From Pseudomonas asplenii (lineage in GTDB: Bacteria; Pseudomonadota; Gammaproteobacteria; Pseudomonadales; Pseudomonadaceae): a DNA stretch of 64,000 nt. A program made the translations under genes and the position numbers. Position 1 is the first letter of the stretch. The number at the start of each line of letters is the position of its first letter. The stretch is taken from positions 6,076,001 through 6,140,000 of the forward strand of contig NZ_LT629777.1 in the NCBI RefSeq assembly GCF_900105475.1. Direction: 5' to 3'. The notes under the pieces are model-generated. The model saw only the letters and a list, made by a program, of their open reading frames with translations. It was not told the origin of the DNA and searched no databases. Shown piece after piece: positions 16,735 through 53,101 of the stretch.

Positions 16735-19700
16735 TCACTCAGGCAACTTCAGGCGCTCCAGCACCGCCGTCAACAAGCCCTGGGAGAGAATGATGCTGTC
16801 ATGGTTCTCCTCCAGCGCCGTTGAAACGCCCAGTCCATTGCGCGCGCACTGTTCCACCAGCACCGCCTGCGCCGCGCCGATTTCCTGGGCAGTCTTGCTT
16901 GCCCCCGCCCACCAGCAGTCCGGCTTGACCTGCAGGGGCTTGAGGGTGAAGGCCTCGCTCAAGAGCGCATTGGTTCGCAACAGACGGTAACCGGTCTCGA
17001 TTTCGTCCTGTACCGCAATATCGCGATAGACCTCGCGCAAGCCCTCGGCACTGACACCGCCAGCCAACGCGACCTGGTCGATGACCCAGTCGGCAATCGC
17101 CTGCTCATCGTCCAATTGCGCCCTGGCCTGTTCGATCAGACCGACAATGGTCTGCTCCTCGATGCCGGGGACAAATGCCAGGAGACTGCCCACCAGATTC
17201 GCGAACAGGCTCTGCTCTTCCTGCGCAACATCCGGCGCCGGTTCTGGCTCAGGCGCAAAGACCTCCAGCGCGGTCGGCAGGCTGGTGTCCACCAGGCCGA
17301 GGAAGCTGACCGCGTCACCGCCCTGTTCCAGCACATGCGCCACTTCCATCGCCAGGGCACCGCCCAGGGACCAACCCAGCAGGTTGTACGGTCCCTGAGG
17401 CTGGGTCTGCCTGATCTGCTGGACGTAGTAACCGACCATTTCATCCCAGGAACGATCGAACCAGCCCGGCACCACATAGCTTTTGTTGACCAGCCCGTAG
17501 ACCCGCCGGTTGTCCTTCAGTTGCCCCGCCAACGGATAGTAGGAATAGGTACCACCACCGCCCGGCGGCAGGCAGAACAACGGTGCGCAATCCGTGCGGC
17601 AGCCGTTCATGCTGATCACCGGTGTCTGCACTTTCGCCTCGCCTTCACGCATGAAGTCGGCCAGGTCGGCCAGTGTCTCCATCAACAGGAAGTCGTGCAG
17701 CTTGATCGTCACACCGAAGACTTCGCGCAGCCGGCCGACCAGGGAAATCACCAGCAACGAATGCCCGCCCAGCTCGAAGAAGTTATCGTTCAGACCGACC
17801 GTTTCGACCTTCAGCAACTGCGCCCAGATATCGGCCAGGCGCTGTTCCAGTTCGGTCCGCGGGGCGACATGGCGGCGCTGTACCGCGCGGGCATCCGGCA
17901 GCGGCAGCGCCTTGCGGTCAAGCTTGCCGTTCGGGGTCAGCGGCATCCGCTCCAGCAGCACCAGGTGCGTGGGCACCATATAGTCCGGCAGGCCGGCCTT
18001 CAGGTGCGCCTTGAGCTGCGCGTGCAATGCCTCCCAGGGTTGCCCGGCGCCCGCGTCACTGAGCACCAGGTAGGCGGCCAGTTGCTTGCCGGTCGGCCCA
18101 TCGAGATCGATGACACTGCTTTCGCGGACCGCGGCATGTTCCTGCAGGCGGGCTTCGATTTCGCCCAGCTCGATGCGGAAGCCACGGATCTTCACCTGGT
18201 GGTCGAGACGGCTGACGTACTCGATCACCCCCTGCTCGCGATAACGGGTCAGGTCACCCGTGCGGTACAGGCGCCCCCCTCCCTGCTCGTCGAACGGATC
18301 GGGGACAAAACGTTCGGCCGTCAATCCCGGACGCTGATGATAGCCGCGGGCCAGGCCGTGGCCGCCAATCAGCAGCTCGCCACGCGCGCCCAGTGGCAGG
18401 GTGTCGAAGTCCTCCCCAAGAATATGCAGGTGGGTATTGGCGATCGGCCGCCCCAGCCAGACATCGTCGCTGGCCGTCAGGTAATGGGCGGCGGACCAGA
18501 TCGTCGTCTCGGTCGGGCCATAGACGTTCCAGACATGCCCGGCCTGCTCGATCAGCCGCTGCGCCAGTTCCGCACTCAGCGCCTCGCCACCACAGAGGAT
18601 CTTGCGCCCGGCCAGGAAGCCGGCCGGGGCCTGGTCGAGCAGCATGCGCCAGGTCGATGGCGTCGCCTGGATCAGGGTGACCGCGTGATGCTCGATCAAC
18701 TCGACCAGCGCCTGCGGATCCTTGTTGCCACCGTTGTCCAGCAACACCACCGAAGCGCCGCACATCAACGGCAGGAACAGTTCCAGCCCGGCGATATCGA
18801 ACGACAGCGAGGTCAGCGACAACACCCGGTCGCGGGCATCGATCCCCGGCTGCCGGGCCATGCTGAAGAGGAAGTTGCTCAACCCCTCGTGGCGGACCTC
18901 GACGCCCTTGGGCTTGCCAGTGGAGCCCGAGGTGTAGATCACATAGGCCAGGTTATCCGGCATAGCCAGATTCGCCAGCGGCGCATCGTCCACGCCATGG
19001 CGCCATTGCGCTTCAAGGTCCAGGCAGAGGCTGCGCACGCCCTCGGGGAGCGGCAGGTGCTCCAGCAGCGGGCTCTGGGTCAGCAGCAGTTGCAGGCCAC
19101 TGTCCTGCATCATGTAGGCCAGCCGATCCTGGGGGAAGTCCGGGTCCAACGGCACATAGGCGCCACCGACCTTGAGAATCGCCAACAGGCCCACCAGCAT
19201 GTCCGGACCACGCTCTACCGCAATCCCCACCAGCACATCCGGCCCCACGCCCGCCTGGCGCAAGGTATGCGCCAACTGGTTGGAACGCTGGTCCAACTGC
19301 CGGTAGCTCATGCGTCCCTCGCGCCAGATCAGCGCCGTGTCCTCGGGCGTACGAGCAACCTGGGCCTCGATCAAACCCTGCACGAAGGCCTGGGCAGGGT
19401 AAGCCGCTGCGGTCTGGTTCCACTCCCGTTCGATCTGCTGCCGTTCGGCCTCGCTCAGCAACGGCAGGTCAGCGACCCGTTGCGTGGCATCGGTGCTGAT
19501 CGCTGCCAGCAACCTGCGCCAATGACGCGCCATGCGCTCGACCGTGCTGCGCTCGAACAAGGCGGTGGCATAGGTCAGGGTGGCGCCCACCCCCTGCTCA
19601 TGCTCGCTGGTATCCAGGGTCAGGTCGAACTGTGCGGTGTGACTGTCCAACGCCAGCCCTTGCACACTCAGCCCGGACAATTGATGCCCTTCACCACTCA

Positions 19701-52600: not shown

Positions 52601-53101
52601 GAGACGAATACTCAGCAGCGGCCCCTGCTGCAGGTCAAATGCCTGCCCGGCCTCCTCGGCCATGACCTGCCGCAGACGCGACCGACGCTGCGGCTCGGCC
52701 AGGGCCTGCAGATCATCGACCCGCACCGACGCTGCCGTCGACGGGGCGACACGCTGGAAGGCCCGTTCGCCATCCTGGCCGAAGGTGGTGCGCAGACACT
52801 CATGCCGGGCAACCAGGGCACTGAAGGCCTGTTCGAGCGCCGCCAGGTCCAATCGACCGTCCAGACGCACGGCCATCGGCAGATTGTATGCCGAGCTTTG
52901 GGGATCGAGTTGCCAGAGGAACCACATGCGCTGCTGTGCATAGGACAGGCCGTCCCGTTCGGCGACGCCATCGCAGGCAACGATGGGCAACAGCGAGAAA
53001 TCGACACCCTCCCGATCCATGGCCGCCAGGAAGATACTGCGCTTCTCCTGGGGCAACTCGATGAAACGGCGAGCGAGTTTCTGTGCGTCTTGGGGCTTCA
53101 T
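49688..53101 (-). CDS. Pyoverdine NRPS, first peptide module (Lys)
   Basis: 1137 residues from the ATG at 53101 (MKPQDAQKLARRF), with AAGGA about 9 nt upstream. The ORF is open further to 53344 but that extension would run into the hydroxylase gene and past the promoter. Order C-A-T: HHIIADG near 182, A3 YTSGSTGRPKG near 677, LGGHS near 1072. The pocket reads DGEDHGTVVK, the code I recall for Lys in pyoverdine synthetases. The C domain is of the L-accepting type, suited to receive the chromophore tripeptide ending in L-Dab from PvdL. Single-module NRPS proteins are less common than multi-module ones in these loci. Likely PvdI-type by position. Confidence 0.9.
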   Translation of the reverse strand: MKPQDAQKLARRFIELPQEKRSIFLAAMDREGVDFSLLPIVACDGVAERDGLSYAQQRMWFLWQLDPQSSAYNLPMAVRLDGRLDLAALEQAFSALVARHECLRTTFGQDGERAFQRVAPSTAASVRVDDLQALAEPQRRSRLRQVMAEEAGQAFDLQQGPLLSIRLVRLAEQEHVLLLTLHHIIADGWSMNILIEEFSRCYDACVAGITAELPTLSVHYRDYALWQRSWLEAGEQARQLTYWREHLGEEHPVLELPTDRPHPAQASHRGARLEVQVDSELRQQLKTLAQRQGVSLFVVLLASFKSLLHRYSGQSDIRVGGLIANRTRSETEGLIGFFVNTQVLRSEVHGQTPFTELLQSLRQASLGAQAHQELPFDALIEALQPARSQSHNPLFQVMFNHQPLVTDVQGRQLASGLRVAHLDEEQGVGQTRQHAAASDLMLETREEGEQLFAAFTYATDIFDGGTIERLAGHWRNLLVAVCSDPQRPISQLPMLAAEEVDNLLSQVDETVATAGNPVSMVHLFEAQARRTPESTALILADAARAPSLSYAQLNRRANRLAHLLRGHGVGPEVLVGLAIGRTLDLAVAILAVLKAGGAYVPLDPQTPPARLAHVLQDSGLKLLLTHSQWLEGLPRLEEVEALCLDRINDSGYAETDLEWTPAAQSLAYVIYTSGSTGRPKGVAITHYALAEFVARATQYSLLEETDRVLQFATSSFDGFVEQFFPPLSLGACVVLRDERLWDSATLHDAILRYGITLADLPAAYWHLLVQDWAARPPAGYGALRQIHIGGEAMAVDGLRLWQQAGLGGVRLINTYGPTEATVVSSTYDCTTLSVEAVSWRGVPIGFGLEQRRLLVLDGDLELLPQGAVGELYIGGPGLARGYQGQPGLSAERFIADPFTPGERLYRTGDRARLREDGAVEYIGRVDHQVKIRGFRIELGEVESRLLQGPGVREAAVLALPLAGGTQLVGYLVADQPLEPAQQSVWRLEVKASLQGRLPDYMVPSHLLILPRLPLTPSGKLDRKALPVPDPSQLQARYREPQTETERCLATIWEEVLRVPRVGLDDHFFELGGHSLLAAQVIARVKTRLAVSLPLRSLFEKPLLSELAAELATLGQGTADNDWADMEQFMSSLEELGA

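What the first reader, a model, noticed from the sequence alone, without database searches (positions are those of the whole stretch)
16735..53101. Ten-module assembly line with a predicted peptide I do not match to a known pyoverdine
Reading the ten A-domain pockets by GrsA-type alignment in gene order gives Lys - D-Asp - Ala - Thr - X(DGEDSTTITK) - D-Asp - Dab - Thr - Gly - Gly. Codes seen: DGEDHGTVVK, DLTKIGHVGK, DLWNNALTYK, DFWNIGMVHK, DGEDSTTITK, DLTKIGHVGK, DIWELTADDK, DFWNVGMVHK, DILQLGVIWK twice. The start resembles Lys-OHAsp-Ala-Thr of pseudobactin B10, but the rest does not correspond to a pyoverdine I can recall. Code-to-residue mapping is from memory of published codes.
Basis: partly seen in the sequence, partly recalled or inferred. 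Interest (0 to 1): 0.8.

Follow-up and report, generated by a model that had tools for sequence, protein, structure and literature searches.

The report
Pyoverdine synthetase of Pseudomonas asplenii group
This is an intact ten-module enzyme line that most likely builds the peptide tail of an iron-scavenging pigment (a pyoverdine) whose structure is not in the lists I could read; it is a new member of a well-known kind, not a new kind of system.

Summary
Ten A domains in five intact minus-strand NRPS genes carry the ten codes reported, in the reported order; 53101 is the credible start of gene 1. It is a pyoverdine line: PvdP, PvdO, PvdN, a PvdE-type exporter, an FpvA-type receptor and PvdS-type boxes lie in the window, PvdL about 13 kb outside. 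The B10 comparison is the weaker one: layout, two E-domain Asp modules, the adjacent TauD-family gene and the lack of a PvdA-like gene in four of five sister genomes fit the hydroxamate-free, two-hydroxyaspartate P. syringae type, extended to ten residues. P. japonica has a ten-module line of parallel layout. X (DGEDSTTITK) is a Lys/Orn-type pocket with Thr for Gly at position 6; I predict diaminobutyrate (0.57; Orn 0.21, Lys 0.12, Arg 0.06). Predicted: chromophore-Lys-D-OHAsp-Ala-Thr-Dab-D-OHAsp-Dab-Thr-Gly-Gly. Sister lines occur in P. gingeri and, as far as read, P. fuscovaginae. No paper found in the open library has this sequence; a 2014 table gives the P. asplenii type-strain pyoverdine as 'structure unknown'. 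The supplement with 188 predicted pyoverdines was not readable. New member of a known kind; moderate to low interest.

The parts
49688..53101 (-). NRPS gene 1: C-A-T, module 1 (Lys, DGEDHGTVVK)
   Evidence: start at ATG 53101 below a PvdS-type box
41859..49691 (-). NRPS gene 2: C-A-T-E-C-A-T, modules 2 (D-Asp, DLTKIGHVGK) and 3 (Ala, DLWNNALTYK)
35264..41821 (-). NRPS gene 3: C-A-T-C-A-T, modules 4 (Thr, DFWNIGMVHK) and 5 (X, DGEDSTTITK; Dab predicted)
27325..35262 (-). NRPS gene 4: C-A-T-E-C-A-T, modules 6 (D-Asp, DLTKIGHVGK) and 7 (Dab, DIWELTADDK)
16735..27309 (-). NRPS gene 5: C-A-T x3 then thioesterase, modules 8 (Thr), 9 (Gly), 10 (Gly)
53268..54320 (-). TauD-family dioxygenase, probable aspartate beta-hydroxylase acting on modules 2 and 6
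   Evidence: PF02668, 164.7 bits; 92-95% identical over 293-335 residues in five sister clusters
53160..53183 (-). PvdS-type promoter box upstream of gene 1
   Evidence: 8 boxes in window, 0.85 expected
13976..16477 (+). FpvA-type TonB-dependent ferri-siderophore receptor with STN signalling domain
   Evidence: box at 13768
12021..13727 (+). PvdE-type cyclic peptide exporter
   Evidence: TIGR01194, 721 bits, cut-off 286.2
11081..11980 (+). PvdO, chromophore maturation
   Evidence: NF051459, 512.8 bits, cut-off 500
9739..11025 (+). PvdN, side-chain tailoring
   Evidence: NF051467, 799.1 bits, cut-off 650
8319..9656 (+). M19-family dipeptidase, PvdM by family and position
   Evidence: PF01244
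6532..8208 (-). PvdP tyrosinase (true start probably near 8145, where the family match begins)
   Evidence: NF051454, 1047.9 bits, cut-off 625
1797..6399 (+). Tripartite efflux genes, PvdRT-OpmQ by family and position (MacA- and MacB-like below their cut-offs, NodT-type outer membrane protein above)
   Evidence: box at 1757

Best explanation
The five genes are the side-chain synthetase of a pyoverdine of the P. syringae type: iron is bound by the chromophore catechol and two D-beta-hydroxyaspartates, with no hydroxamate. PvdL (outside the window) makes the acyl-Glu-Tyr-Dab precursor; genes 1-5 add Lys-D-Asp-Ala-Thr-X-D-Asp-Dab-Thr-Gly-Gly; the TauD-family enzyme hydroxylates both Asp; the thioesterase of gene 5 releases the peptide; PvdE, PvdM/N/O/P export and mature it; the FpvA-type receptor takes it back. 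X is most likely Dab. Shown here: domain order, codes, gene content, homology. Inferred: substrates, hydroxylation, X, and the final chemistry.
For: Codes and domains. Pyoverdine genes; PvdL, whose Dab module is also DIWELTADDK. PvdS-type boxes: 8 found, 0.85 expected, 6 of 8 just upstream of gene starts. P. syringae 1448a has the same layout (hydroxylase gene, one-module Lys gene with code DGEDHGTV, then D-Asp/Thr, Thr/Ser, D-Asp/Ser; passages and Table 2 of PMC3207962). Dab for module 7: the C-A part is 56-61% identical over about 917 residues to ORFs of PvdL size (about 4300-4500 aa) in the listed rows, the own PvdL at 58%; and two relatives whose code order reads Asp-Orn-Asp(E)-Dab-Gly-Ser-OHOrn match the KT2440 peptide of a published table. 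X as Dab: position 6 is Thr in X and in both Dab-type codes seen here (Dab role of DLEHNTTVSK recalled); among 22 distinct D-x-E codes it is Gly in 17 and Thr in 5, and Gly in 26 of 26 lysine codes of PMC12195549 Table 5. The syntenic fifth module of P. japonica is a DIWELTADDK module. Against hydroxyornithine: sisters G307 and G044, with the same line, have no strong Lys/Orn N-monooxygenase (best 38.4 bits each), while four of four genomes with hydroxyornithine codes have 360-370 bits.
Against: X is nearer overall to Orn-, Lys- and even Arg-like domains than to either Dab type: 7 of 10 code positions shared with DGEDHGTVTK and 6 of 10 with DAEDTGAITK, against 5 and 3 for the two Dab types (the DAEDTGAITK count by hand); in the A4-A5 stretch 61-68% mean to DGEDQTTVTK, DAEDTGAITK, DAEDHGTVSK, DGEDHGTVTK and DAEDHGTVTK, but 30-34% to the Dab types. 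The fifth Thr-6 code, DGEDQTTVTK of Caldimonas, has an unknown substrate. No member of the X clade has a structure that I could find. The own genome holds one Lys/Orn N-monooxygenase relative (343 bits) and sister G141 another (292 bits); the own one scores 177 bits to PAO1 PvdA and sits beside unrelated genes. NCBIfam has no hit for the TauD protein, so its substrate rests on family and position.
Confidence: 0.65

Rival explanations
1. Same line, but X is ornithine or lysine (or, less likely, arginine), so the peptide carries a longer basic side chain at position 5.
For: X falls among Lys/Orn-type A domains and is 63% (mean) to DGEDHGTVTK and 65% to DAEDHGTVSK domains in the A4-A5 stretch; a 2025 survey assigns DGEDHGTVTK to Orn (passage of PMC12283262). 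One Arg-like Caldimonas domain (DAEDTGAITK, assignment recalled) is also 65%. Thr at position 9 occurs in that Orn code, but also in two Lys codes of P. fulva, so it does not decide.
Against: Thr at position 6 and Ser at position 5 in 14 of 14 rows of the X clade; 26 of 26 listed Lys codes and the Orn and Arg-like codes collected here have Gly at position 6.
Confidence: 0.39
2. X is N-hydroxyornithine, giving a mixed hydroxyaspartate/hydroxamate chelator.
For: The own genome has one N-monooxygenase relative of PvdA (343 bits).
Against: Sisters G307 and G044 with the same line lack one; the own copy is only 177 bits to PAO1 PvdA and lies with a MetRS-like protein and an MFS pump; X keeps Asp at code position 4, while the DGE-xx-GGVTK codes here have A, C or V; three bidentate groups are already expected.
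Confidence: 0.02
3. The peptide is an already described pyoverdine, or already predicted in print.
For: Gu et al. 2024 predicted 188 pyoverdines from 1928 Pseudomonas genomes (abstract and sections 6-7 of PMC11444679); the list itself is in a supplement I could not open.
Against: None of the structures in the tables read has this sequence; a peptide-string search found no siderophore paper; P. asplenii LMG 21749T is 'structure unknown' in a 2014 table.
Confidence: 0.35

Closest known systems
Pyoverdine of P. syringae (epsilon-Lys-OHAsp-Thr-(Thr-Ser-OHAsp-Ser); B728a entry in PMC4219678 Table 2)
   Same: Hydroxylase gene, one-module Lys gene, then two-module genes; Lys first; E-domain Asp at positions 2 and 6; no hydroxyornithine module; homologous thioesterase (56-59% in five lines)
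   Different: Ala for Thr at 3, X for Ser at 5, Dab for Ser at 7, and a fifth gene adding Thr-Gly-Gly
   Same: Code order Dab-Asp(E)-Thr-Thr-Dab-Asp(E)-Dab-Thr-Gln-Gly (residue names partly recalled): Asp at 2 and 6, Thr at 4, Dab at 7, Thr at 8, Gly at 10; nearest in 8 of 9 segments from C7 to A10 among the lines compared
   Different: Dab for Lys at 1, Thr for Ala at 3, a DIWELTADDK module at 5, a Gln-type code at 9; structure of its product not seen
Pseudobactin B10 (epsilon-Lys-OHAsp-Ala-aThr-Ala-cOHOrn)
   Same: First four residues
   Different: Six residues with a terminal cyclic hydroxyornithine; one OHAsp
KT2440-type pyoverdine (Asp-Orn-(OHAsp-Dab)-Gly-Ser-cOHOrn)
   Same: OHAsp-Dab gene of the same layout in relatives with this code order (2652-2656 aa, 66% over the C-A part of the Dab module)
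   Different: Ends in hydroxyornithine; different first residues

Membership tests
Pyoverdine | Chromophore synthetase PvdL (acyl ligase, Glu, Tyr, Dab modules) | tested here: met
   4344-aa ORF whose near end is about 12.7 kb beyond the window, with four adenylation-type domains, the last DIWELTADDK; Glu and Tyr roles recalled
Pyoverdine | Chromophore maturation enzymes PvdP and PvdO | tested here: met
   Both over NCBIfam cut-offs
Pyoverdine | PvdS-type promoter boxes and an FpvA-type receptor | tested here: met
   (box consensus recalled)
Pyoverdine | Fluorescent product that binds iron | not testable with these tools
   needs the strain
P. syringae-type (two OHAsp, no hydroxamate) | Two Asp modules with E domains plus a SyrP-like hydroxylase gene | tested here: met
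   hydroxylation itself not shown
P. syringae-type (two OHAsp, no hydroxamate) | No ornithine N-hydroxylase (feature recalled; not checked in P. syringae here) | tested here: inconclusive
   no strong match in sisters G307, G044, G070, G334 (best 30-40 bits); the own genome and G141 hold one relative each (343 and 292 bits)
P. syringae-type (two OHAsp, no hydroxamate) | Seven-residue peptide | tested here: not met
   ten modules here; sisters G070, G141, G334 have seven
Pseudobactin B10 | Terminal cyclic hydroxyornithine | tested here: not met
   modules 9 and 10 carry glycine codes

The most novel reading that the evidence does not exclude
DGEDSTT[I/V][T/S]K is a third, independently evolved diaminobutyrate pocket in Pseudomonas, made from a lysine/ornithine-type pocket by Thr at code position 6 and Ser at position 5, and brought into a P. 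syringae-type module by exchange of the A3-A5 core alone; the product is an undescribed decapeptide pyoverdine with Dab at 5 and 7.
Probability: 0.43. Interest if true: 0.4.

Novelty: new member of a known kind. Interest (0 to 1): 0.3.

Why it matters
It gives a checkable structure for the pyoverdine of a group that includes plant- and mushroom-associated species (P. fuscovaginae, P. gingeri, P. asplenii), which decides who can use it. It also offers a test of one A-domain code (X) for which I found no assignment, seen in 10 of 398 Pseudomonas genomes searched.

Tried and rejected
Pseudobactin B10 as closest relative: rejected, only four residues shared and no hydroxyornithine module here. Hydroxyornithine for X: disfavoured. 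Arginine for X: not rejected. Citrulline (DAENIGAITK of azotobactin, assignment recalled) differs at five positions, 32% in that stretch. Recent duplication of the two Gly modules: rejected, A domains 74% and C domains 68% identical. The ORF 6553-8241 (+) that I first scanned as PvdP is the shadow of PvdP on the minus strand. Text searches for code strings found no paper with DGEDSTT or with the four Dab strings tried. A search for P. citronellolis/P. nitroreducens pyoverdines found none. Structure prediction was not run: without a docked substrate it would not separate Dab from Orn. The names G044 = P. gingeri A6001, G141 = QS1027, G319 = P. japonica, G067 = P. kairouanensis, G283 = ATCC PTA-122608 rest on equal contig lengths.
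Full report
What is there. Five minus-strand ORFs without internal stops carry ten C-A-T modules, two E domains and one terminal thioesterase. The window holds 8 such boxes (spacers of 15-18 allowed) against 0.85 expected, and none of the shuffles reached 8. Six of the 8 lie just upstream of the efflux genes, pvdP (taking its start near 8145), pvdM, pvdE, the receptor and gene 1; the other 2 lie within the 3' ends of genes 2 and 4.

It is a pyoverdine line. PvdN, PvdO and PvdP pass their NCBIfam cut-offs; a PvdE-type exporter, an M19 dipeptidase (PvdM), a receptor with STN domain, and MacA/MacB/NodT-like efflux genes are present. 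PvdL lies about 13 kb beyond the window, and a sigma-factor gene lies beside it. The PvdL Dab module bears the same code as module 7. The C-A part of module 7 is also 56-61% identical over about 917 residues to ORFs of PvdL size in the listed rows (298 of 398 genomes match at 1e-230; two candidates per genome were scored and the list is cut), so Dab at position 7 is well anchored.

Which organism. The module-5 query hit P. fuscovaginae IRRI 6609 at 93%, P. fuscovaginae SE-1 at 92% and P. gingeri at 84%. The genome also has a 19-module line whose code order reads like fuscopeptin (recalled), a mycin-like line and a 13-module line, matching what is reported for P. fuscovaginae and P. asplenii type strains (passage of PMC9948697). 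I place it in the P. asplenii subgroup; the exact strain is unknown.

Distribution. Of 398 Pseudomonas genomes searched, the own one included, 10 have an A domain at 76% or more to X in the A4-A5 stretch; at most ten candidates per genome were scored. All 10 have DGEDSTT[I/V]TK codes, and the other 20 of the 30 fetched loci have DGEDHGTVTK (19) or DAEDIGTVSK (1). Reading whole lines, G307 has all ten codes identical and G044 nine of ten (the tenth is another Thr code); G070, G141 and G334 have a seven-module line Lys-Asp-Ala-Thr-X-Asp-Ser. In the named loci only modules 2-7 could be read: P. fuscovaginae IRRI 6609 and SE-1 have the same six codes, P. gingeri D8001 five of six. G171, G305, G339 and G108 use an X-type domain in other lines that carry hydroxyornithine-type codes.

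Relation to P. syringae. The 1448a line (passages and Table 2 of PMC3207962) has the same hydroxylase-then-Lys-then-pairs layout and the same Lys code. Against four lines (P. cerasi, P. congelans, P. triticifolii, Pseudomonas sp. v388), gene 3 is 65-67% identical over the module 5 C domain and 61-67% over the A-subdomain/T part, but only 31-38% over the A3-A5 core; against P. mosselii, with a DAEDHGTVSK module, the core is 62% but the C domain 51%. So the pocket alone seems to have been exchanged: Ser or Gly there, X here. Recombination hotspots at such places are described for NRPSs including pyoverdine lines (passages of PMC7486941). In gene 4, C and A of module 6 align at 77-78% with the seven-module sisters, the E domain at 60-61%, and the module 7 C domain at 40-41%, while the thioesterase of gene 5 is 64-66% identical to theirs. 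The E domain is closer (66-67%) to P. putida GM4FR, P. japonica and P. syringae-group lines than to the sisters, so the breakpoint lies at or before it. The simplest history is replacement of the last Ser module by a Dab-Thr-Gly-Gly block ahead of the old thioesterase. P. japonica is nearest in 8 of 9 segments from C7 to A10 (C9 by less than 0.1 point; C10 goes to GM4FR), but only twelve lines were compared, five of them picked as top hits for module 7. For gene 3, P. japonica is no closer than the P. syringae group (C domain 63%).

What X is. X lies in a clade of 14 rows with DGEDSTT codes (support 99/96) inside Lys/Orn-type domains. Position 4 keeps Asp and position 3 Glu, so a free basic group is expected. 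Position 6 is Thr. Among 22 distinct D-x-E codes collected here, position 6 is Gly in 17 and Thr in 5: three X variants, one Caldimonas code of unknown substrate and DLEHNTTVSK of the own peptin and mycin lines, whose Dab role I recall; the pyoverdine Dab code DIWELTADDK also has Thr there. All 26 lysine codes of PMC12195549 Table 5 have Gly. A larger residue at that place should favour a shorter side chain (inference). The syntenic fifth module of P. japonica has the Dab code, and the T-domain tail after it is 78% identical to that after X. Against this, X is nearer overall to Orn-, Lys- and Arg-like domains than to either Dab type. I put Dab at 0.57, lowered from 0.60 after the Arg-like comparison was corrected.

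Iron ligands. Two E-domain Asp modules and the TauD-family gene, 92-95% identical over 293-335 residues in five sister clusters, point to two D-OHAsp; with the catechol this fills six positions. No strong PvdA relative in G307, G044, G070 and G334 (best 30-40 bits) against 360-370 bits in four hydroxyornithine-coded genomes argues that none is needed. G141 has a 292-bit and the own genome a 343-bit relative; the own one is 177 bits to PAO1 PvdA and sits by a MetRS-like gene.

Is it in print. Seen: tables or table passages of PMC12195549, PMC9925543, PMC8888394, PMC4219678 (it lists P. asplenii LMG 21749T as 'structure unknown'); passages of PMC4589537, which names a pyoverdine cluster in P. 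fuscovaginae-like strains and, in the passages seen, gives no structure. None has this sequence. Searches of the open library by species and by peptide string found none (listings). Not seen: the supplement of PMC11444679 with 188 predicted structures, subscription papers, and HPLC work on phytopathogen pyoverdines that I only recall. A prior prediction is quite possible.

Noticed in passing
L133 (own genome 5895001-5915000), 8705-15279: N-monooxygenase related to Lys/Orn hydroxylases beside an MFS pump, a stand-alone MetRS-like synthetase and a PLP enzyme near enduracididine/capreomycidine families; looks like a separate natural-product cluster, perhaps with an N-N bond. No strong N-monooxygenase relative in sisters G307 and G044.
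   Followed up: partly
L136-L137 (own genome 4645953-4671555): Mycin-like line whose codes read Ser-Dab-Dab-Hse-Orn-Thr-Thr-Asp-like, i.e. Dab rather than Gly at position 3; nearer to syringostatin than to syringotoxin (residue and compound names recalled).
   Followed up: no
L134-L135 (own genome 4603186-4630806): Nine A domains in a row with codes DAFTVAAIWK, two Thr, DVADVGAIDK, DVQFVAQVVK, DLYNMSLIWK, DAWVFGVVIK, DAFFLGVTFK, DVQFIAHVVK; product not identified.
   Followed up: no
window 60982-63446: Two ORFs of 332 and 489 aa without Pfam match, after zinc-uptake type genes.
   Followed up: no
L062 1384-5556 (Caldimonas mangrovi): An NRPS stretch with code DGEDQTTVTK, again Thr at position 6, and a TauD gene 42% identical to the window's nearby.
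   Followed up: no
window 27361-27385 and 41895-41919: Two PvdS-box matches (17-base spacer) with nearly the same sequence inside the 3' ends of genes 4 and 2, just before the next gene; may be chance in a repeated coding stretch.
   Followed up: no
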